A stretch of 64,000 bases of DNA from Devosia rhizoryzae (GTDB lineage: Bacteria; Pseudomonadota; Alphaproteobacteria; Rhizobiales; Devosiaceae): positions 1,922,001 through 1,986,000 of the forward strand of contig NZ_CP068046.1 in assembly GCF_016698665.1 (NCBI RefSeq), read 5' to 3'. A model generated the notes under the pieces. The model was not told where the DNA came from. It did not search any database and was given only the letters and a program-made list of their open reading frames with translations. Below, one piece after another: positions 31,147 to 43,725 of the stretch. A program made the translations under genes and the position numbers. Position 1 is the first letter of the stretch, and each line of letters begins with the position of its first letter.

Positions 31147-32022
31147 TCAGTGTTCGCCGTAGATCAGGCCGGACAGCTCGGTGGCCGCATCTGCGGTGCG
31201 CGGGCCGAAGCCCAGGAGATAGGCACCATCGAGACGGTAGATCGCCTTGTTCTGGCCAGCAGGGGTCAAGGCGATCGCCGGGTGTTCGAGCAATTCGCTA
31301 TCGGAAGCGCCATGGTCGCCGCCCCGGTCCATCATGACGATGACGTCGGGCGCCGCCTCGGTGATCGCTTCTTCGGACAGCGCCTTGTAGCCGGGATATT
31401 CGGTGACGGCGTTGACGGCGCCGGCGAGGGCAATGATGCCATCGGCTGCGGTGCCAGTGCCCGAAGCCTGAATCTGCCCGCCTTGGTTGGAGAGGATGAA
31501 CAGAACGCGCTTGGGCTCGGTGATGGCGGCGTTATGGTCCTTGAGGGCGGCAAATTCGGTTTCGAGTTCAGCGGCCAGGGTTTCGGCCTTGTCGGCAACG
31601 CCCAGCACTTCACCGACGGCGCGCACCTTGGCGACGACACCTTCGGCCGAATAGCTTTCGGGCACGGTCTGGTAGGCGACGCCGGCATGGGAAAGGACGT
31701 CGAGCGCATCCGGCGGGCCGCTGCCTTCGAGCACCAGCAGCGCCGTGGGGCTGACCGAAAGCACGCCTTCAGGCGCCAGCTGGCGCATATAGCCGACGTC
31801 GGGCAGCGCATTAACGGCTTCGGGATAGGTGGCGGTCTGGTCGCGTGCGACCAGACGACCCTCTTCACCCAAGGCATAGATGATTTCGGTCAACGAACCG
31901 CCAATAGATACAAGCCGCGACGTATCGGCAAAAGCGGTCAGCTCCTGCGCGGACGCGGCATGGGGAAGCGAGAAGACGGCGGCGAGCGCCAGGGGGGCGA
32001 GGAAAAAGCGCATGGGTCTCAT
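31147..32022 (-). CDS. hmuT: Periplasmic haem-binding protein
   Basis: The ATG at 32022 overlaps the hmuS stop as TGATG, giving 291 residues with a signal peptide (FFLAPLALAAVFSLPHAASA). Class III binding-protein fold: RLVSIGGSLTEIIYALGEEG at the start of the first lobe, a long helix, and IVMMDRGGDHGA in the second. In this family a Tyr in the first lobe binds haem iron. It passes haem from the receptor to HmuU. Confidence 0.9.
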   Translation of the reverse strand: MRPMRFFLAPLALAAVFSLPHAASAQELTAFADTSRLVSIGGSLTEIIYALGEEGRLVARDQTATYPEAVNALPDVGYMRQLAPEGVLSVSPTALLVLEGSGPPDALDVLSHAGVAYQTVPESYSAEGVVAKVRAVGEVLGVADKAETLAAELETEFAALKDHNAAITEPKRVLFILSNQGGQIQASGTGTAADGIIALAGAVNAVTEYPGYKALSEEAITEAAPDVIVMMDRGGDHGASDSELLEHPAIALTPAGQNKAIYRLDGAYLLGFGPRTADAATELSGLIYGEH

Positions 32023-33065
32023 CAGGCAGCGTTGGAGGTGGAATGGAGCGGCAGCGTTTCGACAAGGCTCCGCCATGCCGTGCGTTCATCGGTGCCCTCC
32101 TGGCGCTGGCCGAAGAACTGGATGATCAGCTCGCGATTGGCGTCATAGAGTTCGACCGAGGTCACATGGCCACCGGCGGTCGGCTTGCGCACGGCCCAGG
32201 CATTGACCACCTGGTCGAGCCGCAGGTGGAGATGGAAGGTCTCATCCATGACATTGAGCCAGGGACCCATTGGCGCGACCTTGGTGATCGGGCCGGCATG
32301 GATCTGAATGCAGGCATTGTTGCCGACAAAGACCATGATCGGCAGCTGATCGGCAGCGGACTGGTCGAACATGGTTTTGATGGCGGCGTGGTCGAGCTGC
32401 CAGGCATAATCCTCACCCACCATCTCCAGCGCATCGAGGCGGGGAAGGTTGAGCTTGCGCAGCATGGGGAAGAACTGGTGCGTGTCGGTCATCGCCGCCC
32501 AGCTTTCGCGCAGCGCGGCAAGGCTGGCCGGCTCGCCCAGCGCCTCGACCGGCGCCGGTTCCGCAACGGTCAAAGTATCGGTCTGCTCGGGATGGCGCAG
32601 GTTTTCGACCAGCAAGGCCCAGGCCTCGAGGTCGGTCGCCGGACGTGCATGCACCTTGTGCGCAGCCATGCCCTGGGCATCGAAAAACTGCAGCGAGCGG
32701 CGAACGCTGCCGTCATCATTGGCCTTTTCCACGGCATAGCCATGAGCCCAGCGCTTGGGGAAGATGCGGAGGTCGATCTGCTCACCCAAGACCATCGAGG
32801 CCATCGGCCCGATCACGACCTTCTCGTAAGGTCCGATCTTTTCGTGCACAGCGCTTTCGTTGCGCGTCAGTGCCATCACCTCGCCTACGGCGGTCAGGCC
32901 ATTTAGCAGGACTTCGACGTTGGGCTTGAGACGGATCACCGTGCGTCCCACGTCGGCTGCGACCAGTTCGGCTTCGGAGATGGAATGGATGCGCGCAAAA
33001 TCGCGCTCACGCATTTCCGGGTGCTTGGCCCGCAGGTCGCGGATGTCTTGAGGGGTTTTGCGCAT
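32022..33065 (-). CDS. hmuS: Haemin-degrading/haem-trafficking protein
   Basis: 347 residues, two-repeat HmuS/ChuS/HemS fold. N-terminus RDFARIHSISEAELVAADVG, central and C-terminal tandem repeats, with IQIHAGPITKVAPMGPW and DETFHLHLRLD in the second half as typical of the family. Cytoplasmic; related proteins bind haem or release iron from it. First large gene of the operon, 17 bp after hmuP. Confidence 0.9.
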   Translation of the reverse strand: MRKTPQDIRDLRAKHPEMRERDFARIHSISEAELVAADVGRTVIRLKPNVEVLLNGLTAVGEVMALTRNESAVHEKIGPYEKVVIGPMASMVLGEQIDLRIFPKRWAHGYAVEKANDDGSVRRSLQFFDAQGMAAHKVHARPATDLEAWALLVENLRHPEQTDTLTVAEPAPVEALGEPASLAALRESWAAMTDTHQFFPMLRKLNLPRLDALEMVGEDYAWQLDHAAIKTMFDQSAADQLPIMVFVGNNACIQIHAGPITKVAPMGPWLNVMDETFHLHLRLDQVVNAWAVRKPTAGGHVTSVELYDANRELIIQFFGQRQEGTDERTAWRSLVETLPLHSTSNAA

Positions 33066-33082
33066 GATGGATCAGGTGACGC

Positions 33083-33232
33083 CTATTTGGTGAGAATGAG
33101 CTTGTCGTTGCGGGTCACCCGCAACCGGTAAGGCACGCCGGCATGCCAGACGATGACTTCTGTCGCCCCCTGAAACAGGTCTTCCGCAGGGATAGAGCGC
33201 GGCTGTGCATGGTCGTTTCGGGAGTCGGACAT
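33083..33232 (-). CDS. hmuP: Haemin uptake protein HemP/HmuP (49 aa)
   Basis: A short gene, 49 codons, read on the minus strand from ATG (33230-33232) to TAG. The sequence has the HemP signature: [19 protein letters not shown], then [15 protein letters not shown]. Rhizobial HmuP is a regulator that co-activates haem-uptake genes. It lies just upstream of hmuS in the same direction. No strong ribosome site is seen before the ATG. Confidence 0.88.
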
Positions 33233-33351
33233 AAGACAGGAGGCAGCTTTTTAGCGTTTGATGACAATGGCTTGCTGAACTGCGGCTTTTTCGACGCCGT
33301 GTTTCAGAAAACTTGACTCCAATAGCCATGTTATGTAGCAGACGCAATAGG

Positions 33352-33366
33352 TGATTTACGTTGTCA
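33352..33366. promoter_or_regulatory. Candidate iron-responsive (RirA-type) operator
   Basis: The sequence is TGA-N9-TCA, embedded in GGTGA-N9-TCACC. TGA-N9-TCA is the core of the IRO box bound by the rhizobial iron regulator RirA. It sits 56 bp before the receptor start and in the intergenic region shared with hmuP. The motif is short, so chance is possible, but the setting (haem locus) supports it. Confidence 0.5.
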
Positions 33367-33422
33367 CCTTTAGCCAGCCAGCCGACGCCAGCCAGCCAAC
33401 TCAAAAACAATTGGAGACTAAA

Positions 33423-35576
33423 ATGGGGCTGGTTAGGTCGCGTCGCGCTGCACTCATGTGCGGCGTAGCGCTTGGAATGGTTGTGGCGCAGGGGGCTGCG
33501 GCACAGCAAAACGTCAATGCGACGAACATAACGCTGCTCGAGCGTCTGGTGATCGGCCTCGGCATGCCCAAGGTCGCGATCGACACGCCGCAGGCGGTGA
33601 CGGTGGTCAATCAGGCCGATATCGACCAGATCCAGGCAACGACCACGGGCGAGATTTTCAAGAGCGTTCCCGGTGTCACCATTGTCGGCAGCGAGCGCCA
33701 GTTCGGTGAAGCTTTCAACATCCGCGGCATCGGCACGACCGAGAACTCGTCAGACGGCAGCCGCGTTGTCGTTAATGTCGACGGCACGCCCAAGTTCAAC
33801 GAGCAGTACCGCATGGGCTCGTTCTTCTCCGACCCCGAGCTTTACAAGCAGGTCGAAGTGCTGCGCGGACCAGCGTCCTCGACGCTCTATGGCGCCGGTG
33901 CTCTGGGCGGGGTCATCAACTTCACCACCAAGGACGCGTCCGACTTTATCAAGGACGGCTATACCGGCGCGCTCAACGTCAAGACCGGCTTCTCCAGCAA
34001 TGGCCTGGGCACGCTGACCTCGGCGGTTTTGGCGCAGCAGATCAGCGATACGTTCGAAGTTCTAGCCGCCGGCAACTGGCGCCGCCAGGAAGACCTGACC
34101 CAGGCCAAGGGCACGACGCTTCCGGGTTCGGGCTTTGACACGCTCTCCGGCCTGATCAAGGGTACCGCCCTCATCGGCGAACAAAAGCTCACCGCCTCCT
34201 ACCAGCACTGGACCAGTGACGCCAAAGACCAGGCCTATGCCCAGACCAGCACGCAGGCCGCTTTCGGCGTGACTGATCGCGCTGTGCTCGACCAGACGGC
34301 CGTGCTGCGCTGGGAGAACCCGGCCACAGACAATCCCTGGGTGGATCTCAATGTCCAGCTGAGCTATTCCAACACCACCAACAACCAGACCAATCACCGC
34401 TATGCGCTTGGCGCACCGCGCACCGTGATCGGTTCCAATCTTCCAAACTTGGGGGTCGTCACGCCTGATGGACAGTTGGGCATCCTGCTGGACACCACGT
34501 ATGGTTACAAGACTTGGCAGCTACAAGCCGATAACACCGTGGAATGGATCGGCGAAGACTTTGAGAACTACTTCACGTTCGGCGCACAGGGCTCGACCCA
34601 GGATCGCACCGCGGTGCGGCCGGGAACGTCGATCACCCTACCTGCCCACCCACAGGGAACGGAAAACAAGCTCGGCATTTTTGCGCAGAACGAGTTCGTT
34701 TGGAACGACAAGCTGACGCTGATCGCCGGCGCACGCAGTGACAGCCATTGGGTAACATCCACGAATGGTTTTGCCAGCGCTGCCGACACCGCCTTTTCCC
34801 CCAAGCTTTCAGCACTTTATCAGATCGACGATACCTTTGGCGTCTTCGGCTCTGTGGCGCATACCGAACGCCTACCCACGATCGACGAGCTCTACTCAGT
34901 TGCCCTACCTTCTGCTCGCAGTGCCGCAAAGACCACTAGCCTTAACCTGCGTAAGGAACAGGCCAATACGGTCGAAGGCGGCTTGACAATCTCGACTCAA
35001 GACCTCTTCAGCTCGGGCGATGTGGCCAGCGTCAAGACCACCGCGTTTTATAGCGACCTCACCGATCTTATCGTCTCCAACACCGCACTCCCTGCCGTGC
35101 CGGTCACCTATTACGGCAATGTGGGAAAGGCGCGTATCTATGGCCTAGAGATCGAAGGCGCTTATGACAACGAGTGGATGTACGCCAATCTCGCCTACTC
35201 CGCGACGATCGGCGACAATCTCGTCACCAACACGCCACTCACCACCGTGCCGCAGAGCAAGGTCGTAGCGACGCTTGGCTTCAAGCATGAAGAGTTCGGT
35301 CTCAACTATGGGGCGCGTGTGACCTTGGCTGACCTTGGCCGTTATTTTGTTCCTGCGGCCACACCACAGGGTCAAACCGCCGACGGTCCGGCCGAGGCCG
35401 TCGGCACGCTCGATCTTTTCGCCAGCTGGAAGCCGCAGACCGGCCCCCTCGCCGGCACGCAGATCCAGGGCGGGATCGACAATGTCTTCAATGCCGACTA
35501 CCGCGAGAACCTCTCCTCGGATCGCTCCACCGGCCGAACCTTCAAGATCAGCCTATCCAAGCAGTTCGACTACTAG
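33423..35576 (+). CDS. hmuR: TonB-dependent haem receptor
   Basis: The ATG at 33423 has GGAG upstream and gives 717 residues. Signal peptide ends AQGAAA; a TonB-box-like ITLLERLVI follows. Plug domain: PQAVTVVNQADIDQIQATT, NIRGIGTTENSSDGSR, VEVLRGPASSTLYGAGA. The barrel ends with NVFNADYRENLSS and a terminal aromatic (QFDY), the usual outer-membrane signal. It is divergent from hmuPSTUV, so it likely takes up haem or haem-protein; the FRAP/NPNL motif of other haem receptors is only partly present (TERLPTIDELY). Confidence 0.88.
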   Translation: MGLVRSRRAALMCGVALGMVVAQGAAAQQNVNATNITLLERLVIGLGMPKVAIDTPQAVTVVNQADIDQIQATTTGEIFKSVPGVTIVGSERQFGEAFNIRGIGTTENSSDGSRVVVNVDGTPKFNEQYRMGSFFSDPELYKQVEVLRGPASSTLYGAGALGGVINFTTKDASDFIKDGYTGALNVKTGFSSNGLGTLTSAVLAQQISDTFEVLAAGNWRRQEDLTQAKGTTLPGSGFDTLSGLIKGTALIGEQKLTASYQHWTSDAKDQAYAQTSTQAAFGVTDRAVLDQTAVLRWENPATDNPWVDLNVQLSYSNTTNNQTNHRYALGAPRTVIGSNLPNLGVVTPDGQLGILLDTTYGYKTWQLQADNTVEWIGEDFENYFTFGAQGSTQDRTAVRPGTSITLPAHPQGTENKLGIFAQNEFVWNDKLTLIAGARSDSHWVTSTNGFASAADTAFSPKLSALYQIDDTFGVFGSVAHTERLPTIDELYSVALPSARSAAKTTSLNLRKEQANTVEGGLTISTQDLFSSGDVASVKTTAFYSDLTDLIVSNTALPAVPVTYYGNVGKARIYGLEIEGAYDNEWMYANLAYSATIGDNLVTNTPLTTVPQSKVVATLGFKHEEFGLNYGARVTLADLGRYFVPAATPQGQTADGPAEAVGTLDLFASWKPQTGPLAGTQIQGGIDNVFNADYRENLSSDRSTGRTFKISLSKQFDY

Positions 35577-36086: not shown

Positions 36087-36091
36087 ATCAA

Positions 36092-36120
36092 CCCCGGTCT
36101 CGCAAGAGGCCGGGGTTTTT
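36092..36120 (+). terminator. Rho-independent terminator after tRNA-Pro
   Basis: CCCCGGTCTC and GAGGCCGGGG form a 10-bp stem (one G-T pair) with a GCAA loop, followed by five T. Confidence 0.85.
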
Positions 36121-36150: not shown

Positions 36151-36166
36151 ATGTTCATCTGAACAT
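36151..36166. promoter_or_regulatory. Perfect palindrome, candidate operator for the DeoR-type regulator
   Basis: ATGTTCA, two bases, then TGAACAT, an exact 16-bp palindrome 48 bp before the regulator start. DeoR-family repressors bind inverted repeats near their own promoter. No other gene lies between the tRNA terminator and the operon. Confidence 0.55.
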
Positions 36167-36213
36167 CAGCGAACTGTCATTGAGCTTTCACATGAGGCCC
36201 TTACTTGGGCTGC

Positions 36214-37029
36214 ATGACCGATGAGACACTCACCCTTCGCCAGATCGCCATAGCCGACCTTCTGCGGGAAGAACGCTATCTGCCGATCAGCGACCTGGCT
36301 AACCGGTTTACCGTCACGACGCAGACCATCCGGCGGGACGCGGCGGTTCTGTGTGATTTGGGCCTGGCGCGGCGCCTGCACAAAGGCATCAAGGCCATGG
36401 ATTTTCCCGGCACGGAAAATCTCGCCTATGCCAAGCGCAGCATGCTCAATGCCATCGCAAAACGGGACATTGCCGAGCTTGTTGCCGAGCTCGTTCCCGT
36501 AGACCAGGATGTGTCGGTGTCACTGGGCATCGGCACGACGCCCGAACAGATCGCCGTCGCGCTGGCCCGGCGCGAGCGGCTGATGGTCGCCACCAACAAT
36601 CTCAATGTCGCCTTCGCGCTCAGCGGCAAGCCCAATATCCGCGTGCATGTGAGCGGCGGCCAGATGCGTCCGCTGGACCGTGATTTCGTCGGCATCGAGC
36701 CGATCGGCTTTTTTTCGCAGTACCGCGTCGATTTCGGCATCACCGGGGTCGGTGGCATCGATGAGAACGGCGACTTCTACGATTTCAGCGCCGAGGAAGT
36801 GGCGATCCGCCAGGCGATCCTGGGCAATTGCCGGCAGCGCGTCGTCGTTGCCGATACCTCCAAGTTCGGCCGCTCCGCCCCGGTGCGTGGCGGCTCCCTA
36901 GACTCGGTGGACATTCTGGTCACCGATCTGCCACCCCCGCCAAGCGTCCAGGCGGCGGCCCGGCAGGTAGGCGTGCGTCTGGTTTATCGCCAGAAGCGCA
37001 ATCTCAACCTCCTCCCCAGCAAGGACTAG
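36214..37029 (+). CDS. DeoR/GlpR-family regulator (AccR-like position)
   Basis: 271 residues from the ATG at 36214. N-terminal DeoR helix-turn-helix with FTVTTQTIRRDAAVL, then the DeoR sugar-phosphate sensor domain: SLGIGTTPEQIAVAL, GGQMRPLDRDFVGIEP and TGVGGIDENGDFYDF. Members typically sense phosphorylated sugars. It lies 10 bp before an ABC importer and at the head of an eight-gene unit whose content matches accR-accA-G of the agrocinopine locus. It probably represses the unit through the palindrome at 36151. Confidence 0.9.
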   Translation: MTDETLTLRQIAIADLLREERYLPISDLANRFTVTTQTIRRDAAVLCDLGLARRLHKGIKAMDFPGTENLAYAKRSMLNAIAKRDIAELVAELVPVDQDVSVSLGIGTTPEQIAVALARRERLMVATNNLNVAFALSGKPNIRVHVSGGQMRPLDRDFVGIEPIGFFSQYRVDFGITGVGGIDENGDFYDFSAEEVAIRQAILGNCRQRVVVADTSKFGRSAPVRGGSLDSVDILVTDLPPPPSVQAAARQVGVRLVYRQKRNLNLLPSKD

Positions 37030-37039
37030 CTAAACCATC

Positions 37040-38578
37040 ATGACCATTCTCAAATCACTTGGCGGCCTTGCCGCTGGGGTGGCTGTTGTCGCCCTTATGG
37101 CTGGCGCAACGCTTGCCCAGGATCGCCCCACATTGCGCATTGCGGTGCAGTCCAATCCGCCGACCGCCGAGGTCATCGATGCCGAAAGCAATGTCGGCTA
37201 TCGCTCCAACTATTCGATCCACGATACGCTGATCCAGTTCAATTATGCCGGCGACATGTCGCTGCAGCCGCACCTGGCGACCAGCTGGGAATGGATCGAC
37301 CCGACGACGCTTGAAGTGAAACTGCGCGAAGGCGTGATCTTCCACGACGGCCGCGAGATGACCTCCGAAGATGTCGTCTTCTCCTTCGGCCCCGAACGCC
37401 TAACCGGCGAGGAAGCCCCCGGCAAGCCGATGGTGCGCCGCTATTGGGTGAGCCTTGAGGGCGTCGAGGCGGTCGACAAGTATACCGTCCGCTTCACCAC
37501 GACTTACGAAGATCCCATCTTCCTGCAGCGCCTCACCGCCTGGACATCGCAGATCATCTCCAAGCAGGCCTATCTCGAAGCGGAAAGCTACGATGCCTGG
37601 CGCATCAAGCCGGTGGGTGCAGGTCCCTTCAAGGTCGACCACATCACGCCCAATGATGAAACGGTGTTCGTCGCCCATGACCAGTATTGGGGCGGCAAGC
37701 CGAATGCGGAAAAGGTGATCTTCACGGTTGTGCCGGAAGTATCCTCGCGCGTCGCCGGGCTTTTGGCCGGCGATTACGACATCGCGACCGATCTGCCACC
37801 AGACCAACTCGATGCCGTGGAGGCCGGTGACGGCGTTTCGGTGGTCGGCGGCCCGGTCAACAACAACCGCATCATCTTCTTCGACAAGACCAATCCGGTT
37901 CTTGAAAATCCGCTGGTGCGCCAGGCCATCAGCGTCGCCATCGATCGCCAACTGATCGTCGACACCATCTGGGGCGGACGCACGCAGGTGCCCAATGGCC
38001 TGCAGTATGATTTCTTCGGCGACATGTATCTCGAGGACTTCCCGGCCTACGAATATAACCCGGAAAAGGCCAAGCAATTGCTGGCCGAAGCGGGCTATGA
38101 CGGCACCGAAATCAGCTTCCGCAGCAACAACAATTACTACACCGCCGAACTTGCCACGAGCCAGGCCCTGGTCGCTATGTGGCAGGCAGTGGGGCTCAAT
38201 GTCGTGCTTGAAGTGGGCGTCGACAACTTCACCCGAGAGGATGGCCGCGCCTTCGGCAACTGGTCCAACTCCGCACTTCTTCCCGATCCGCTGTTCTCGC
38301 TGTGGAGCCAGCACGGCCCGGCAAGCGTCCAGGCTTCTCTGGGCATCTGGAGCAATGACGAGTTCTACGCCCTGGGCGAAAAGCTCGAGCGCTCCACCGC
38401 GCTCGAAGATCGCCGCGACGCCTTCCGCGCCATGCTCGACATCAACGAGTGGACCGATCCGGGCGTGCTGACCCTGCACCAGAACGCTGTCTTTTACGGC
38501 ATCTCCGATGAGGTCGACTGGAACCCCTACGTGTTCCTCTACATGGACCTCGGTCCCGACCGCCTGAAGTTCAACTGA
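37040..38578 (+). CDS. Oligopeptide-type ABC transporter binding protein (AccA-like)
   Basis: 512 residues. Signal peptide (GGLAAGVAVVALMAGATLAQ) then a cluster-C solute-binding fold (SBP_bac_5): LQPHLATSWEWIDPTTLEVK, LREGVIFHDGREMTSEDVVF, NNRIIFFDKTNPVLENPLVR, AISVAIDRQLIVDTIWGG. This is the usual family for peptides, but also for opines and agrocinopine (AccA). The genes after it encode a phosphodiesterase and a phosphatase rather than peptidases, so a phosphodiester sugar is more likely than a peptide. Confidence 0.88.
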   Translation: MTILKSLGGLAAGVAVVALMAGATLAQDRPTLRIAVQSNPPTAEVIDAESNVGYRSNYSIHDTLIQFNYAGDMSLQPHLATSWEWIDPTTLEVKLREGVIFHDGREMTSEDVVFSFGPERLTGEEAPGKPMVRRYWVSLEGVEAVDKYTVRFTTTYEDPIFLQRLTAWTSQIISKQAYLEAESYDAWRIKPVGAGPFKVDHITPNDETVFVAHDQYWGGKPNAEKVIFTVVPEVSSRVAGLLAGDYDIATDLPPDQLDAVEAGDGVSVVGGPVNNNRIIFFDKTNPVLENPLVRQAISVAIDRQLIVDTIWGGRTQVPNGLQYDFFGDMYLEDFPAYEYNPEKAKQLLAEAGYDGTEISFRSNNNYYTAELATSQALVAMWQAVGLNVVLEVGVDNFTREDGRAFGNWSNSALLPDPLFSLWSQHGPASVQASLGIWSNDEFYALGEKLERSTALEDRRDAFRAMLDINEWTDPGVLTLHQNAVFYGISDEVDWNPYVFLYMDLGPDRLKFN

Positions 38579-38596
38579 TCCTATCCCTGAAACTTG

Positions 38597-38620
38597 GCTC
38601 CGGCGGTTCGCTGCCGGAGC
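38597..38620 (+). promoter_or_regulatory. Intercistronic hairpin after the binding-protein gene
   Basis: GCTCCGGC and GCCGGAGC form an 8-bp stem with an 8-base loop, in the only sizeable gap (59 bp) of the operon. Without a T-tract it is more likely an mRNA-stabilising stem that favours the binding protein. Confidence 0.5.
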
Positions 38621-38637
38621 GCTTTGACGAGGTCATC

Positions 38638-39492
38638 ATGCCCCTGCTCGCGCTCGAAAACCTGTCCATCGCCTTTCCTTCGCGCAACGGCTTCCATTGG
38701 GCCGTCGAGGACGTGTCCTTTTCCCTAGGCAAGGGCGAAATCCTGGGCATCGTCGGCGAAAGCGGGTCGGGCAAGAGTGTCACATGCCTGTCGCTCGTGG
38801 GTCTTCTGGGTCATGGCAGCCAGGTGAGCGGCACCATGCGGTTCGATGGCCAAGTCCATGCTATTGCGGACCTGCCGCGCCTCAGCGTCGATCAGCGCCC
38901 CTCGATCGGCATGATCTTTCAGGACCCGGCGGCAAGCCTTAATCCCGTGCGCACCGTGGGCTCGCAGATCACCGAAGTGCTGCGTTTCGGGCGCGGCATG
39001 GATCGCCGCGCTGCCCAGGCGGAAGCAGCCGCCTTGCTGGATCGCGTCGGCATCCGCGAACCCGAAGCAAGGCTTCGCTCCTATCCGCACCAAATGAGCG
39101 GCGGCATGAACCAGCGCGTCATGATTGCCATGGCCCTGGCCGGCCAGCACCGCCTCCTCGTGGCCGACGAGCCGACCACGGCGTTGGACGTGACCATTCA
39201 GGCGCAGATCTGCAAGCTGCTGCGCAATCTCGTGCGCGAAACGGGCCTCTCCATCATCTTCATCTCGCACGACCTCGACCTTGTGGCCCAGCTCTGCGAC
39301 CGCGTCGCTGTAATGTTCGGCGGGCATCTGCTCGAAACCCAGTCCGCCAGCGACATCGTCGTCGCCCCACGACACGCCTATACCAAGGCACTGCTTGCAG
39401 CCATTCCCGGCCATCAACCAGCCCGCTCCCGGCTGGGGGTCATCACCGACGAGATGCGTTCGAGCTTTCTCGATCAAGGAGAAGCCGCATGA
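38638..39492 (+). CDS. ABC transporter ATPase (OppD-type)
   Basis: 284 residues. Walker [12 protein letters not shown], then [17 protein letters not shown], signature [15 protein letters not shown], Walker [15 protein letters not shown], and HDLDLVAQL. OppD/DppD-type with a C-terminal extension that is shorter than in full OppD proteins. It overlaps the next ATPase gene by 4 bp (ATGA). Confidence 0.9.
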
Positions 39493-40328
39493 GTGCTCCG
39501 GCCCTCCGCCTCGACGGCGTCCGTTACCTCCATCGTCAAGCCAAGAGCCTTTTGCCCTGGCGCCGCTCCATCGCCCGCTCGGGCGGCGTGGAAGAGGTTT
39601 CCATCACGGTCGCCTCCGGCACGACGCTTGGCCTTATCGGTGAAAGCGGGTGCGGCAAGTCAACGCTTGCCAGCCTCATCATGGGCGATCGCGTGCCGCA
39701 GGCGGGCACGATCGACCTCTTCGGCAGGCCGCTTGCCCAGCGCCTGGGGCGGGGGCGCAAGGCTTTGGCGAGAGAGCTCCAGATGGTGGCGCAAGACCCC
39801 TTCGGCTCCATGGACCCGCGTCAGGCGATCGGCCCGCAACTGGTGGAAACGCTTGATGTGCATGACGAGGGCAGCTCGGCTGGCGAGCGGCGGGATCGCG
39901 CCCTTGCCATGCTGGTGCAGGTCGGTCTTTCGGAAATCAACTACGCTCGCCTGCCCCATCAGCTTTCGGGCGGACAACGCCAGCGCGTCTCGATCGCCCG
40001 CGCACTGATCCTCAAGCCGCGCATGCTTGTTTGCGACGAGCCCGTTTCCGCCCTCGATGTCTCGGTGCAGGCACAGGTGCTCAACCTCCTGCTCGATCTG
40101 CAAGAGCAGATGAACCTCACCATGGTGTTCATCAGCCACGACATCCGGGTCGTCGGCCACATGTCCCACGCCATCGCAGTCATGCAGGCGGGCCGTATCG
40201 TCGAGCAGGGCGCTGCCGAAACCGTTCTGGCCAACCCGCGCCACGAGTATAGCCGAACACTTTTCGCCGCCGTGCCGGGGCGCGTAACCGTCGCAAAGCC
40301 TGCCCGGCTTCTGGAGTCCGCATTGTGA
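39489..40328 (+). CDS. ABC transporter ATPase (OppF-type)
   Basis: 279 residues. Walker A GESGCGKSTLAS, MVAQDPFGSMDPRQAIG, signature LSGGQRQRVSIARAL, Walker B MLVCDEPVSALDVS. It pairs with the preceding ATPase. Overlaps the first permease gene as GTGA. Confidence 0.9.
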   Translation: MSAPALRLDGVRYLHRQAKSLLPWRRSIARSGGVEEVSITVASGTTLGLIGESGCGKSTLASLIMGDRVPQAGTIDLFGRPLAQRLGRGRKALARELQMVAQDPFGSMDPRQAIGPQLVETLDVHDEGSSAGERRDRALAMLVQVGLSEINYARLPHQLSGGQRQRVSIARALILKPRMLVCDEPVSALDVSVQAQVLNLLLDLQEQMNLTMVFISHDIRVVGHMSHAIAVMQAGRIVEQGAAETVLANPRHEYSRTLFAAVPGRVTVAKPARLLESAL

Positions 40329-41251
40329 TCCGCACCCTTTTCGCCAATCTGGCCCGCGGCCTCCTCGCTATTATTCTCACCGTGACCTTCGTCTTCGTCA
40401 TCCTGCGCGTCGCTGGTGATCCGATGACCATGATCCTGCCGCTCGAGGCCAGTCCCGAGCAGATAGAGGCCACCCGCATCGAGTGGGGATTGGATCAGCC
40501 GCTCCATGTCCAATACGGCAACTACGTCGCCAAGCTCCTGCAAGGCGATTTCGGGCGCTCCAATGCCGATGGCCGCCCCGCCCTTGCCGTTGTCATGGAA
40601 AAAGCTCCGGCCACCATGCTGCTGATGTTGACGGGGATGAGCCTCGCCTTGGTCCTGGGCATCAGCATGGGCATTCTTGCCGCTTTCTTTCGCGGCGGCA
40701 TCGTGGATCGGGCGGTGATGGGTGGCGCGGTGCTCGTGCATGCCATGCCAGGATTTTTGCTCTGCATCTTCGCCGTGCTGCTGTTTGCGGTGCAACTGGG
40801 CTGGTTGCCGAGCGGCGGCGGCAGTTCGCCGCTGCATCTGATCATGCCATCGCTGGTCATCGGCCTGTCCGCCGCCGGCGTCATCGCGCGCTTCGTTCGC
40901 TCCAGCGCGCTCGAAGTCCTGGGGCAGAACTACATCCGAGTTGCTTCCATCAAGCCCTTGCCGCGCTGGTATCTGTTCGCCTTTCACGTCATGCCCAACG
41001 CTTCCCTGCCCTTGCTGACGCTGGTGGGCTTTCTGCTCGGCGGCATGATCGGTGGCGCCGCAATCGTTGAATCGGTCTTTGCCTGGCCCGGCATCGGCCG
41101 CTTCCTTGTCACCGCCGTGACCAAGCGGGATCTGGCGACTGTCCAGGCCATCGTGATCCTGGTTTCGGTGACAATGGTCACCGCGAACCTCCTCGCCGAC
41201 ATCCTTTACACCGTCGTCGATCCACGCCTGCGCAACCGCCGGGAGGCTTGA
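40325..41251 (+). CDS. ABC transporter permease (OppB-type)
   Basis: 308 residues, starts GTG overlapping the ATPase stop. Six hydrophobic segments, with the N-terminal LARGLLAIILTVTFVFVILR and the BPD-type EAA loop reading YIRVASIKPLPRWYLF, then ESVFAWPGIGRF near the end, typical of DppB/OppB permeases. Confidence 0.9.
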   Translation: MIRTLFANLARGLLAIILTVTFVFVILRVAGDPMTMILPLEASPEQIEATRIEWGLDQPLHVQYGNYVAKLLQGDFGRSNADGRPALAVVMEKAPATMLLMLTGMSLALVLGISMGILAAFFRGGIVDRAVMGGAVLVHAMPGFLLCIFAVLLFAVQLGWLPSGGGSSPLHLIMPSLVIGLSAAGVIARFVRSSALEVLGQNYIRVASIKPLPRWYLFAFHVMPNASLPLLTLVGFLLGGMIGGAAIVESVFAWPGIGRFLVTAVTKRDLATVQAIVILVSVTMVTANLLADILYTVVDPRLRNRREA

Positions 41252-41254
41252 GTC

Positions 41255-42139
41255 ATGACCATTCTTGCGCCCCCTGCCCTTCCCGTCCGCAGCCGCCCCG
41301 GCTGGATCGCCCGGCAAGGCTGGCCGGTCGTCCTCGCCATGGCCGTGATCGCCCTCTACATCGTGGTCGCCATTGGTGCGCCATGGCTAGCGCCCTATGA
41401 TTTCGCGGGCATCGACCTGGTCGCGCGCAATGCGCCGCCGGTTGGCTTCGGCGGCACCTGGGCACACCCCATGGGCACCGACGATCTGGGCCGCGATGTG
41501 CTCAGCCGCACCATGAGTTCGGTGCGCACCAGCCTGTCGGTGGCGCTGATCGCCAGCATGGTGAGCCTGGTGATCGGCGTTGGCCTCGGGCTCCTGTCCG
41601 CCCGCCGCCGCGGCTTTGCCGATGGTGCCATTCGCGTTGCCGTCGACGTCAATGCCGCCCTGCCCTTCATGATCCTTGCGCTCTCGGTTCTGGCCTTTTT
41701 CGGCAAAAACATGGTGCTGTTCGTCTGCCTTCTCGGCCTTTACGGCTTGGAGCGATACACCCGCCTCGTGCGGGCAGTCGCCATGGCGGAATACGAGAAG
41801 GGCTATGTCGCAGCGCTTCGCCGGATCGGAGCGTCCGAGCGCCGCATCGCCCTCAGCCATGTGCTGCGCAATGTGTTGCCGGTGGTCATCGTCAACTGGA
41901 CGATATCGCTCCCCGAAGTGATCCTGCTCGAATCGAGCCTCAGCTTTCTCGGTCTCGGCATCCAGCCGCCCAATGCCAGCCTTGGCAATATGGTGGGGCT
42001 GGGACGAGACTCGGTGGTCACCGCCTGGTGGATCGCTACCATGCCCGGCATCACCATTTTCATCCTCACCTTTGCCGTCAGCGTCCTCGGGGACTGGCTG
42101 CGCGACTATACCGATCCCAGCCTTTCCAAAGGAAATTGA
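41255..42139 (+). CDS. ABC transporter permease (OppC-type)
   Basis: 294 residues. Starts 3 bp after the first permease. HPMGTDDLGRDVLSRTMS is the hallmark of DppC/OppC permeases; the EAA loop reads EKGYVAALRRIGASERRI, and ESSLSFLGLGIQPPNASLG closes the membrane core. Confidence 0.9.
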   Translation: MTILAPPALPVRSRPGWIARQGWPVVLAMAVIALYIVVAIGAPWLAPYDFAGIDLVARNAPPVGFGGTWAHPMGTDDLGRDVLSRTMSSVRTSLSVALIASMVSLVIGVGLGLLSARRRGFADGAIRVAVDVNAALPFMILALSVLAFFGKNMVLFVCLLGLYGLERYTRLVRAVAMAEYEKGYVAALRRIGASERRIALSHVLRNVLPVVIVNWTISLPEVILLESSLSFLGLGIQPPNASLGNMVGLGRDSVVTAWWIATMPGITIFILTFAVSVLGDWLRDYTDPSLSKGN

Positions 42140-42141
42140 CC

Positions 42142-42864
42142 ATGACCCCTCCCCAAATCGTTGCTCACCGCGGCAGCGCGACCGATCGTCCCGAGAATGC
42201 GCTCTCCTCGTTTATTGCTGCGGCAGGAAGTGGCGTGGAGCAGATCGAGCTCGACGTGCATATGAGTTCGGATGGCCAGCTCGTGGTCATGCATGACGCC
42301 ATGCTGGAGCAGACCAGTCTCGGCCATGGCGCGATCGCTTCTCACACCCTGGCCGAACTGCAGCAGATTAAGCTGCGCGGCATGGACGAGACCATTCCCA
42401 CGCTCGCCCAGGTGCTCGACGCCGTTGGCCAATCGATCCACACCCGCATCGAGATCAAGAAGGGCCCGGTCGAATATGCCGGACTGACGGAAGCGATCAT
42501 GGAGGCCGTCGAAAGCCGCTCGCTCAAGGACCGCGTCACCATCATGTGCTTCCAGCTCGCCTCGATCCAGCCATTTGCCAAGGCCGGATACGAGACCAGT
42601 CTCTCCTTTTCCAAGAGCTTTGGGTCCGAACGAGACCTATCAACCCTCGTCAAGCGCCTAGCCGACGATGGCGTCGCCGATATCGGCTATTTCTTTCACG
42701 AGCTCGACGCGGAAGCGATCGAGACGATCACGGCTGCAGGCCTCACCGTCGGCGCCTGGACCGTCAATGGAATGCCGCGGCTCGATTACTGGCTGCGCCA
42801 GCCGATCAGCTACATCCTCACCGATCAGGCTGACCTCGCCCTCTCTATCCGCGCCGGCCTCTGA
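42142..42864 (+). CDS. Glycerophosphodiester phosphodiesterase family protein (AccF-like)
   Basis: The ATG at 42142, two bases after the permease stop, gives 240 residues; the open frame upstream is the permease's shadow. GDPD TIM barrel with the catalytic set intact: His9-Arg10 (VAHRGS), Glu36 and Asp38 (IELDVH) and His51 (VVMHD); Glu92-area EIKKG strand present. No signal peptide, so cytoplasmic, UgpQ-like. In the acc locus the homologous AccF cleaves the agrocinopine phosphodiester after import. The natural substrate here could be a sugar phosphodiester or a glycerophosphodiester. Confidence 0.92.
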   Translation: MTPPQIVAHRGSATDRPENALSSFIAAAGSGVEQIELDVHMSSDGQLVVMHDAMLEQTSLGHGAIASHTLAELQQIKLRGMDETIPTLAQVLDAVGQSIHTRIEIKKGPVEYAGLTEAIMEAVESRSLKDRVTIMCFQLASIQPFAKAGYETSLSFSKSFGSERDLSTLVKRLADDGVADIGYFFHELDAEAIETITAAGLTVGAWTVNGMPRLDYWLRQPISYILTDQADLALSIRAGL

Positions 42865-42882
42865 CGCCAAGAAAAGCCCTTC

Positions 42883-43725
42883 ATGACCGAGACCACATCC
42901 AGCGCCGTGGCGGAACGTGCCACGGTGGCAACCCGAATTATCCGCGATGCCGGCCAGCTCGCCCTGGCCTACTTCCGGCGCTATCGGAGCCTTGCCGTCG
43001 AGACCAAATCGGGTCAGCAGGACATAGTCAGCGAGGCCGACCGGCAGGTCGAGACGCTGATCCGGGAAGCCCTGATCACCAGTTTCCCCGAGGACGGGCT
43101 CGTCGGCGAAGAGCACGGCGTCCAGAAGGGCACTTCCGGTTTCACCTGGCTGATCGATCCGATCGATGGCACTTCGCCCTTTCTTCACGGCCTTCGGACC
43201 TGGTGCGTGGTGCTCGCCTTGATTGAGAAGAATCGCCCCGTCGCCGGATTGATCTATGATCCGTCCGCAGACGAGCTCTTTGTCGCCGTACTGGGGCAAG
43301 GCGCTACCATGAATGGAGCTCCGATCACGGTCGACCAAAGCTCCACGCTGCAGCAGGGGCTGACGGCGATCAGCGCTGTGGTGGAGGTGCCGGGGGCACA
43401 GATCGCCGGCATGATCGAACGCCTGCACGATCTTGGTGGCGCCTATATTCGCCTGGGATCCGCCGCTCTCACCCTCGCCTATGTCGCGGCCGGGCGCCTT
43501 GTCGGCTATTTCGAGCGCCAACTGCATTCCTGGGATTGCGTTGCCGGCCTGCTTATCGTCAAGGAGGCTGGGGGCACCGTCTCGGTGTTCCCGCTCGCCG
43601 ATGGTCCCCTGGAGATCGGCCCAGCCTATGCCGCCAGTCCCACTGTTCACAATCCCCTGGCCAATTTGATCCAGGCACAAGTGTTCGAACTGGCCCCTTT
43701 GGAGGTTAGCTCAAGCGGGTATTAA
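42883..43725 (+). CDS. Inositol-monophosphatase-family phosphatase (AccG-like)
   Basis: 280 residues. Metal-binding motifs are intact: GEEHG, WLIDPIDGTSPFLHG and the C-terminal WDCVAGLLIVKEAGG. This family removes phosphate from inositol, histidinol and sugars. Coming directly after the phosphodiesterase, it probably dephosphorylates the phospho-product of that enzyme, as AccG does in the agrocinopine pathway. Glycerophosphoinositol breakdown (phosphodiesterase then inositol phosphatase) is an alternative that fits the two enzymes equally. Confidence 0.9.
   Translation: MTETTSSAVAERATVATRIIRDAGQLALAYFRRYRSLAVETKSGQQDIVSEADRQVETLIREALITSFPEDGLVGEEHGVQKGTSGFTWLIDPIDGTSPFLHGLRTWCVVLALIEKNRPVAGLIYDPSADELFVAVLGQGATMNGAPITVDQSSTLQQGLTAISAVVEVPGAQIAGMIERLHDLGGAYIRLGSAALTLAYVAAGRLVGYFERQLHSWDCVAGLLIVKEAGGTVSVFPLADGPLEIGPAYAASPTVHNPLANLIQAQVFELAPLEVSSSGY

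What the first reader, a model, noticed from the sequence alone, without database searches (positions are those of the whole stretch)
36151..43725. Complete acc-type operon: importer, phosphodiesterase, phosphatase and DeoR regulator
The eight genes match, one for one in kind, the agrocinopine locus of Ti plasmid pTiC58: accR (repressor), accA-E (oligopeptide-type ABC importer), accF (related to UgpQ glycerophosphodiesterase) and accG (related to inositol monophosphatase). Genes are tightly coupled (ATGA, GTGA, 2-20 bp gaps). The catalytic residues of both enzymes are intact. It sits right after two tRNA genes and is surrounded by ordinary housekeeping genes, with no plasmid transfer genes. 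This suggests a chromosomal system that imports a phosphodiester sugar (or glycerophosphoinositol), cleaves it in the cytoplasm and removes the phosphate. The substrate is unknown. If the binding protein accepts pyranose-2-phosphate ligands, it could also admit agrocin 84.
Basis: partly seen in the sequence, partly recalled or inferred. Interest (0 to 1): 0.82.

Follow-up and report, generated by a model that had tools for sequence, protein, structure and literature searches.

The report
Acc-like phosphodiester import operon
This bacterial chromosome carries an operon built like the tumour-sugar (agrocinopine) system of crown-gall plasmids; it probably imports an unknown sugar phosphodiester, cuts it and strips off the phosphate, but it uses differently descended enzymes, so the crown-gall version may be one branch of a wider nutrient-uptake theme.

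Summary
The eight-gene operon is real: DeoR regulator, family-5 binding protein, OppD/OppF-type ATPases, two permeases, GDPD phosphodiesterase, inositol-monophosphatase-family phosphatase, in the gene order of the pTiBo542 acc operon. By sequence and fold, the binding protein's closest solved relatives are AccA proteins. In a tree it is sister to a clade with the pAtK84b and A. vitis CG412/CG118 acc proteins and plain Rhizobium loci; C58/Bo542 AccA lie elsewhere. The AccA phosphate contacts are kept, but sugar-clamping E510 is lost. The core residues are not specific to agrocinopine: 37 of 45 binding proteins with all five have a phosphodiesterase gene nearby, against 2 of 15 with fewer than three. 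The enzymes are not AccF and AccG: the phosphodiesterase is 19% identical to AccF and in another clade; the phosphatase is 48% identical to one in an Afu-type sugar-phosphate importer operon, 33% to AccG. Best reading: an AccA-type importer with separately recruited enzymes for an unidentified sugar or polyol phosphodiester. Agrocin 84 uptake is untested. Glycerophosphoinositol as carbon source is disfavoured: two standard inositol-catabolism markers were not found.

The parts
36151..36166 (.). perfect palindrome ATGTTCATCTGAACAT, candidate operator of the DeoR-type regulator
   Evidence: inner 14-mer pattern found at one place in the whole genome. Role inferred.
36090..36117 (+). intrinsic terminator of tRNA-Pro, separating it from the operon
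   Evidence: 1 found, shuffles mean 0.1
36214..37029 (+). DeoR/GlpR-family regulator (alternative TTG start at 36205)
   Evidence: 29-30% to AccR
37040..38578 (+). AccA-type periplasmic binding protein (family-5 SBP, 512 aa)
38638..39492 (+). OppD-type ATPase
39489..40328 (+). OppF-type ATPase
40325..41251 (+). OppB-type permease
41255..42139 (+). OppC-type permease
42142..42864 (+). GDPD-family phosphodiesterase of a small clade of its own, not the AccF clade
42883..43725 (+). inositol-monophosphatase-family phosphatase, related to phosphatases of Afu-type sugar-phosphate importer operons, not the AccG clade

Best explanation
The operon encodes a chromosomal uptake and breakdown route for a sugar (or sugar-like polyol) phosphodiester. 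Inferred steps: the AccA-type binding protein grips the ligand by its phosphate and ring; the Opp-type ABC transporter brings it in intact; the GDPD enzyme cuts the diester into a sugar monophosphate and an alcohol; the IMPase-family enzyme removes the phosphate; the monophosphate probably releases the DeoR-type repressor from the 36151-36166 palindrome. It works like the agrocinopine acc operon but is not an orthologous copy of it: the importer is a sister lineage of the clade that holds the pAtK84b-type AccA, and the two enzymes were recruited separately. Shown here: gene content, family assignments, residue conservation, phylogeny, association of this binding-protein type with phosphodiesterase genes. 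Not shown: the ligand, transport, catalysis, regulation.
For: The best solved relatives of the binding protein are AccA chains, 280-294 bits against 123 for the next kind; the top 11 Foldseek rows are AccA structures. It is identical at 11 of 17 AccA ligand-contact positions against 33% overall (positions from PMC4526662, results). Loci whose binding protein keeps N54, N284, Y375, Y376 and S419 carry a GDPD or alkaline-phosphatase-superfamily gene on the same strand within 9 kb in 37 of 45 cases, against 3 of 6 with three or four of these residues and 2 of 15 with fewer; with the Rhizobium LacI lineage collapsed, 22 of 30 against 2 of 15, Fisher p 3e-4. The genome's only other GDPD match is not near any of its 12 other family-5 loci found. 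The phosphatase is 48% identical (246 bits) to one in a LacI-Afu-type importer-phosphatase operon, whose binding protein matches AfuA chains 4r72-4r75 at 305 bits; AfuABC imports glucose-6-, fructose-6- and sedoheptulose-7-phosphate (PMC4546632, passages). Homologues of the GDPD, phosphatase and binding protein are listed with the same longest-contig length, 256,523 (P0002, P0129, P0250), which suggests that the unit is conserved in a relative.
Against: E510, one of four side chains that hold the pyranose OH1 in AccA, is L500 here; positions 52, 372, 421, 430 and 434 and gate residue W423 also differ, so the sugar part may not be a pyranose-2-phosphate. 8 of 45 proteins with all five core residues have no phosphodiesterase nearby; in 5 of these (L065, L066 twice, L071, L074) a sugar isomerase/epimerase-like gene is found instead, so the residues do not prove a phosphodiester ligand. 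The tally used reference proteins taken partly from the same annotated loci, many loci are related, and 11 of the 15 control proteins come from the window's own genome. No experiment bears on this operon.
Confidence: 0.72

Rival explanations
1. It is a functional agrocinopine-type system: the natural ligand carries a pyranose-2-phosphate (agrocinopine-like), and agrocin 84 could enter.
For: Y145, W178, N54, N284, Y375, Y376, S419 equivalents are all kept; the pocket is nearer to C58 AccA (11 of 17) than that of the pAtK84b AccA Arad_14130 (8 of 17), whose plasmid is reported to confer agrocinopine A+B catabolism (PMC6546132, passages and section 22).
Against: E510 and the W423 gate are lost; the enzymes are not AccF/AccG; no LuxR-type autoinducer-binding domain in the genome; the core residues occur in loci with other partner enzymes. 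Which of the three pAtK84b binding proteins takes agrocinopine is not known from what I read.
Confidence: 0.15
2. It salvages glycerophosphodiesters from phospholipids, such as glycerophosphoinositol, by import, GDPD cleavage and (for the inositol case) dephosphorylation of inositol-1-phosphate.
For: GDPD and inositol-monophosphatase families fit this by name; the best curated model for the GDPD is the glycerophosphodiesterase PRK09454, though at 96 bits against a cut-off of 264; one related phosphatase locus adjoins ugp and iol genes.
Against: No IolB found (the only PF04962 hit scores as 5-dehydro-4-deoxy-D-glucuronate isomerase) and only a sub-threshold IolD match (189 against 715 bits); other iol genes were not searched. 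GDPDs are described as giving glycerol 3-phosphate and alcohol (PMC12807533, passage), which needs no phosphatase for the alcohol. The genome's second GDPD is nearer to PRK09454 (201 bits, also under its cut-off).
Confidence: 0.15
3. It is an ordinary peptide or nickel importer with two unrelated phosphoesterase genes caught in the same transcript.
For: Family-5 binding protein and Opp-type ABC genes are usually annotated as peptide/nickel transport.
Against: Binding-protein similarity to AccA far exceeds that to DppA or NikA; 2 and 18 bp spacing of the enzyme genes and recurrence of phosphodiesterase genes with this importer type.
Confidence: 0.06

Closest known systems
acc operon of pTiBo542 (and, from the literature, pTiC58): accR-accABCDEFG
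   Same: gene kinds and order; AccA-type binding protein; GDPD plus IMPase-family enzymes; DeoR-family regulator
   Different: binding protein 33-34% identical; phosphodiesterase 19% to AccF and outside its clade; phosphatase 33% to AccG and outside its clade; chromosomal; the NUDIX and aldose epimerase genes that follow accG in pTiBo542 have no counterpart among the ORFs
acc region of opine-catabolic plasmid pAtK84b and of A. vitis CG412 and CG118
   Same: closest binding proteins in a named acc locus, 54-56% identical; DeoR regulator in front
   Different: three accA and two accF copies on pAtK84b; enzymes of the AccF/AccG clades; pAtK84b and pAvCG412 are typed conjugative
LacI-regulated SBP-ABC-GDPD loci of Rhizobium tropici-type genomes
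   Same: importer genes 51-62% identical, GDPD at the end
   Different: LacI regulator, no IMPase-family gene seen, GDPD on the AccF side of the tree
Afu-type sugar-phosphate importer operons with an IMPase-family gene
   Same: the phosphatase, 48% identical
   Different: import a phosphomonoester through an unrelated binding protein; no phosphodiesterase annotated in them
Xanthomonas xanthosan system (AvrBs2-XanT-XanP), PMC12807533, abstract and passages
   Same: dedicated uptake and hydrolysis of a sugar phosphodiester as nutrient
   Different: TonB-dependent outer-membrane transporter and a 2H-phosphoesterase; the ligand is a cyclic galactose-phosphate dimer made in the host

Membership tests
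Ti-plasmid acc operon | gene order accR-A-B-C-D-E-F-G | tested here: met
Ti-plasmid acc operon | AccA-type binding protein | tested here: met
   (a different lineage from C58/Bo542 AccA)
Ti-plasmid acc operon | full pyranose-2-phosphate pocket, including the OH1 clamp N54/N284/S419/E510 | tested here: not met
   three of the four clamp residues, 11 of 17 contact positions
Ti-plasmid acc operon | AccF-clade phosphodiesterase | tested here: not met
   19% identity over the alignment, separate clade; local matches of 32-34% over 82-94 aa only
Ti-plasmid acc operon | AccG-clade phosphatase | tested here: not met
   33% identity, separate branch; local match 38% over 228 aa; AccG branch is long
Ti-plasmid acc operon | plasmid location and link to TraR quorum sensing | tested here: not met
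   single 3.52 Mb contig; no PF03472 match in the genome, control found it in E. coli
Ti-plasmid acc operon | binds agrocinopine or agrocin 84 | not testable with these tools
   needs purified protein
AccA-type phosphodiester importers (grouping proposed here) | N54, N284, Y375, Y376, S419 equivalents | tested here: met
   N51, N275, Y366, Y367, S409
AccA-type phosphodiester importers (grouping proposed here) | phosphodiesterase gene in the same gene run | tested here: met
peptide/nickel importers (DppA, OppA, NikA) | binding protein closest to these | tested here: not met
   best chain outside the AccA group scores 123 bits against 280-294
glycerophosphoinositol-to-inositol catabolism | standard inositol pathway genes in the genome | tested here: not met
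   IolB and IolD only; other iol genes not tested

The most novel reading that the evidence does not exclude
AccA-type binding proteins form a broad family of importers for phosphodiesters that circulate in soil and plant habitats and are not yet described; each lineage has recruited its own phosphodiesterase (at least four GDPD clades and alkaline-phosphatase-superfamily enzymes), and the crown-gall agrocinopine system, present in two separate AccA lineages, was assembled from this pool. The window operon is one such independent assembly for an unknown natural sugar phosphodiester.
Probability: 0.4. Interest if true: 0.75.

Novelty: new variant of a known kind. Interest (0 to 1): 0.5.

Why it matters
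Glucose-2-phosphate diesters are reported from only a few natural compounds (PMC7356202, passages), yet binding proteins with the AccA core residues recur in many Alphaproteobacteria and often sit beside phosphodiesterase genes. If they import phosphodiesters, there is an unrecognised class of natural ligands, and the Ti-plasmid system becomes a special case whose origin can be traced. The separate enzyme recruitment gives ready targets for ligand discovery: a binding protein and its own phosphodiesterase.

Tried and rejected
Simple 'acc operon copy': rejected by the GDPD and phosphatase trees. AccA residues as proof of a pyranose-2-phosphate ligand: rejected, because the core residues are widespread. 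Glycerophosphoinositol as carbon source: weakened by missing IolB/IolD. Island insertion at tRNA-Pro: no second copy of the 23 bases at the tRNA 3' end in the window with up to 3 mismatches. The tRNA pair region is found in relatives; in 16 stretches fetched (16 of the 24 same-genus genomes G001-G024) no match to the GDPD, the phosphatase, the heme receptor, the HutX-like, SH3 or 45080-45718 proteins was found; 6 of 16 had only low-identity matches (25-46%) to ABC, family-5 or DeoR proteins. So the operon is absent there, but no clean empty site with the window's own right-hand neighbours was seen. GC content shows no step. Shared operator with pAtK84b, pTiBo542 or A. vitis CG412 acc: no matching palindrome in the stretches given. 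Sigma-70-type promoter scan: none found. Heme receptor at 33351-35576 as an outer-membrane partner: rejected, it scores over the cut-off of the TonB heme receptor family. The host genus was not named by any tool; Devosiaceae is a guess from one homologue's source name (P0257).

Limits: trees were built on chosen subsets (46 GDPD, 58 phosphatase, 71 binding-protein rows) and several branches are flagged as long. Homologue lists are capped at 120 shown (733 and 686 found). PMC4526662 names Glu504 as a contact, but position 504 is Trp in the printed 4ra1 sequence; I used position 504 as it stands.
Full report
WHAT IS THERE. Eight co-directional genes fill 36214-43725: a DeoR-family regulator, a family-5 binding protein, OppD- and OppF-type ATPases, OppB- and OppC-type permeases, a GDPD phosphodiesterase and an inositol-monophosphatase-family phosphatase. 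Start-stop overlaps and gaps of 2 to 18 bp couple them, except for 59 bp after the binding protein. Active-site motifs of both enzymes are intact. The tRNA-Pro gene in front has its own terminator. Between it and the regulator lies a perfect palindrome at 36151-36166, whose inner 14-mer pattern is found at one place in the 3.52 Mb genome; this is the obvious candidate operator, not a shown one.

THE IMPORTER. The best solved relatives of the binding protein are AccA chains (280-294 bits; next kind 123). An AlphaFold model (mean pLDDT 90.7) gives AccA structures in the top 11 Foldseek rows (TMq 0.83-0.90), with other family-5 proteins behind (TMq up to 0.84); since all share the fold, this is weaker evidence than the sequence scores. 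In a tree of 71 rows the window lineage (14 rows, 100/99) and its sister group (26 rows, 100/98) form a clade with 100/100 support. The sister group holds the pAtK84b proteins Arad_14132 and Arad_14130, those of A. vitis CG412 and CG118, LacI-regulated Rhizobium loci, and proteins named from Dickeya, Pectobacterium and Paraburkholderia. C58 and Bo542 AccA, and the third pAtK84b accA, lie in another part. The pAtK84b-type acc region is described as different from that of pTiC58-type plasmids, with under 22% coverage between a plasmid of each type (PMC6546132, section 22).

THE POCKET. Against the contacts listed for C58 AccA (PMC4526662, results), the window protein is identical at 11 of 17 positions: 53, 54, 145, 178, 284, 375, 376, 418, 419, 420, 504. 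It differs at positions 52, 372, 421, 430, 434 and 510, and at gate residue W423. E510 is one of four side chains that hold the pyranose OH1. The phosphate contacts (N54, Y375, Y376, S419) are therefore kept and part of the sugar contacts changed.

THE POCKET CORE IS NOT UNIQUE TO AGROCINOPINE. The five core residues (N54, N284, Y375, Y376, S419) occur in many relatives. In one search I scored 66 binding proteins other than the window's, from 58 loci chosen by binding-protein similarity or as own-genome paralogues. Of 45 with all five, 37 had a GDPD or alkaline-phosphatase-superfamily gene on the same strand within 9 kb, and 42 had either that or a sugar isomerase/epimerase-like gene; the three without are two on a 4.5 kb contig (L019) and one in L055. 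Of 6 with three or four residues, 3 had a phosphodiesterase. Of 15 with fewer than three, 2 had one: L057, and one in L067 that merely neighbours an AccA-type operon. Collapsing the Rhizobium LacI lineage to one row gives 22 of 30 against 2 of 15 (Fisher p 3e-4). Caveats: the reference proteins come partly from these loci, the loci are not independent, and 11 of the 15 control proteins are from the window's genome. There a Pfam search found only two GDPD genes, one in the operon and one at 713 kb, away from the other family-5 loci.

THE ENZYMES ARE NOT ACCF AND ACCG. The window GDPD is 19% identical to AccF of pTiBo542 over the alignment (locally 32-34% over 82-94 aa to the two pAtK84b AccF copies). 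AccF groups with the Rhizobium GDPDs (100/98); the window GDPD groups with 18 close homologues of 67-88% identity, after which the listed hits drop to 44% or less. The window phosphatase is 33% identical to AccG over the alignment (38% over 228 aa locally) but about 50% to other alphaproteobacterial phosphatases. I opened five annotated plasmid loci of such relatives, of 30 listed and 186 records found. Four are importer binding protein, permease, ATPase, phosphatase in a row, with a regulator annotated as LacI in two and as a substrate-binding-domain protein in two; the fifth differs. Three of the four binding proteins were checked: AfuA (4r72) is the best chain for two, and for the third it is within 1 bit of a chain named iron(III)-compound-binding (305-317 bits). 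4R72-4R75 are AfuA alone and with glucose-6-, fructose-6- and sedoheptulose-7-phosphate (PMC4546632, passage). This phosphatase family is thus at home behind importers of phosphomonoesters, which is the product expected from the GDPD step.

SUBSTRATE. I commit to a sugar or polyol phosphodiester; the identity is open. Agrocinopine-like ligands are possible but not favoured. Glycerophosphoinositol as a carbon source is made unlikely by the lack of IolB and of an IolD over its cut-off; other iol genes were not searched. A sugar phosphodiester used as bacterial food outside the agrocinopine system has precedent in xanthosan (PMC12807533, abstract and passages), by quite different proteins.

DISTRIBUTION. 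Among 151 genomes searched, 19 (own included) had a match at E 1e-100 or better, none but the window's own above 47% identity; at E 1e-125, 4 of 397 in the order and 1 of 398 in the phylum, own included (the sets overlap, and at most 3 candidates per genome were scored). A scan of named genome contigs gave 18 loci, the best at 56%. Homologues of 68-92% (13 full-length proteins, P0002-P0014) come from few, mostly unnamed, sources. The longest-contig length 256,523 shared by P0002, P0129 and P0250 suggests one conserved unit. The operon is therefore rare and patchy; how it arrived is unresolved.

LITERATURE. Ten searches were made. Their listings showed no paper that treats AccA-type proteins as a general phosphodiester importer family; the listings are capped and the library lacks most subscription journals, so this is not proof of absence.

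VERDICT. A real, well-formed operon that very probably works like acc, but fails several membership tests of acc. New variant of a known kind, of moderate interest by itself and more if the wider family reading holds.

Noticed in passing
L057:1084-5081, L012:16338-19452, L059:1-3654: AccA-like loci of Nitratireductor, Roseibium and Mesorhizobium lie beside genes for asparagine synthetase, nucleotidyltransferase and, variously, GHMP kinase and CDP-alcohol or phosphatidylcholine-type transferases: perhaps the bacteria make a phosphodiester next to its importer. The Nitratireductor binding protein keeps only one core residue.
   Followed up: no
L009:2401-14485: Plasmid pAtK84b carries three accA genes: one 40% and two 33% identical to C58 AccA, so the name accA covers two lineages.
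   Followed up: partly
L067-L070, L073: Five genomes of the window's genus carry another AccA-type operon with both a GDPD and an alkaline-phosphatase-like gene between the ATPases and the permeases.
   Followed up: partly
window 32022-35576: A TonB-dependent heme receptor gene and a gene with a weak HutX match lie upstream of the tRNA pair.
   Followed up: partly
L100:1315-14762: In Neorhizobium sp. NCHU2750 an Afu-type importer with an IMPase-family gene adjoins ugp and iol genes, a hint that some of these phosphatases act on inositol phosphates; this speaks mildly for an inositol-type product in the window too.
   Followed up: no
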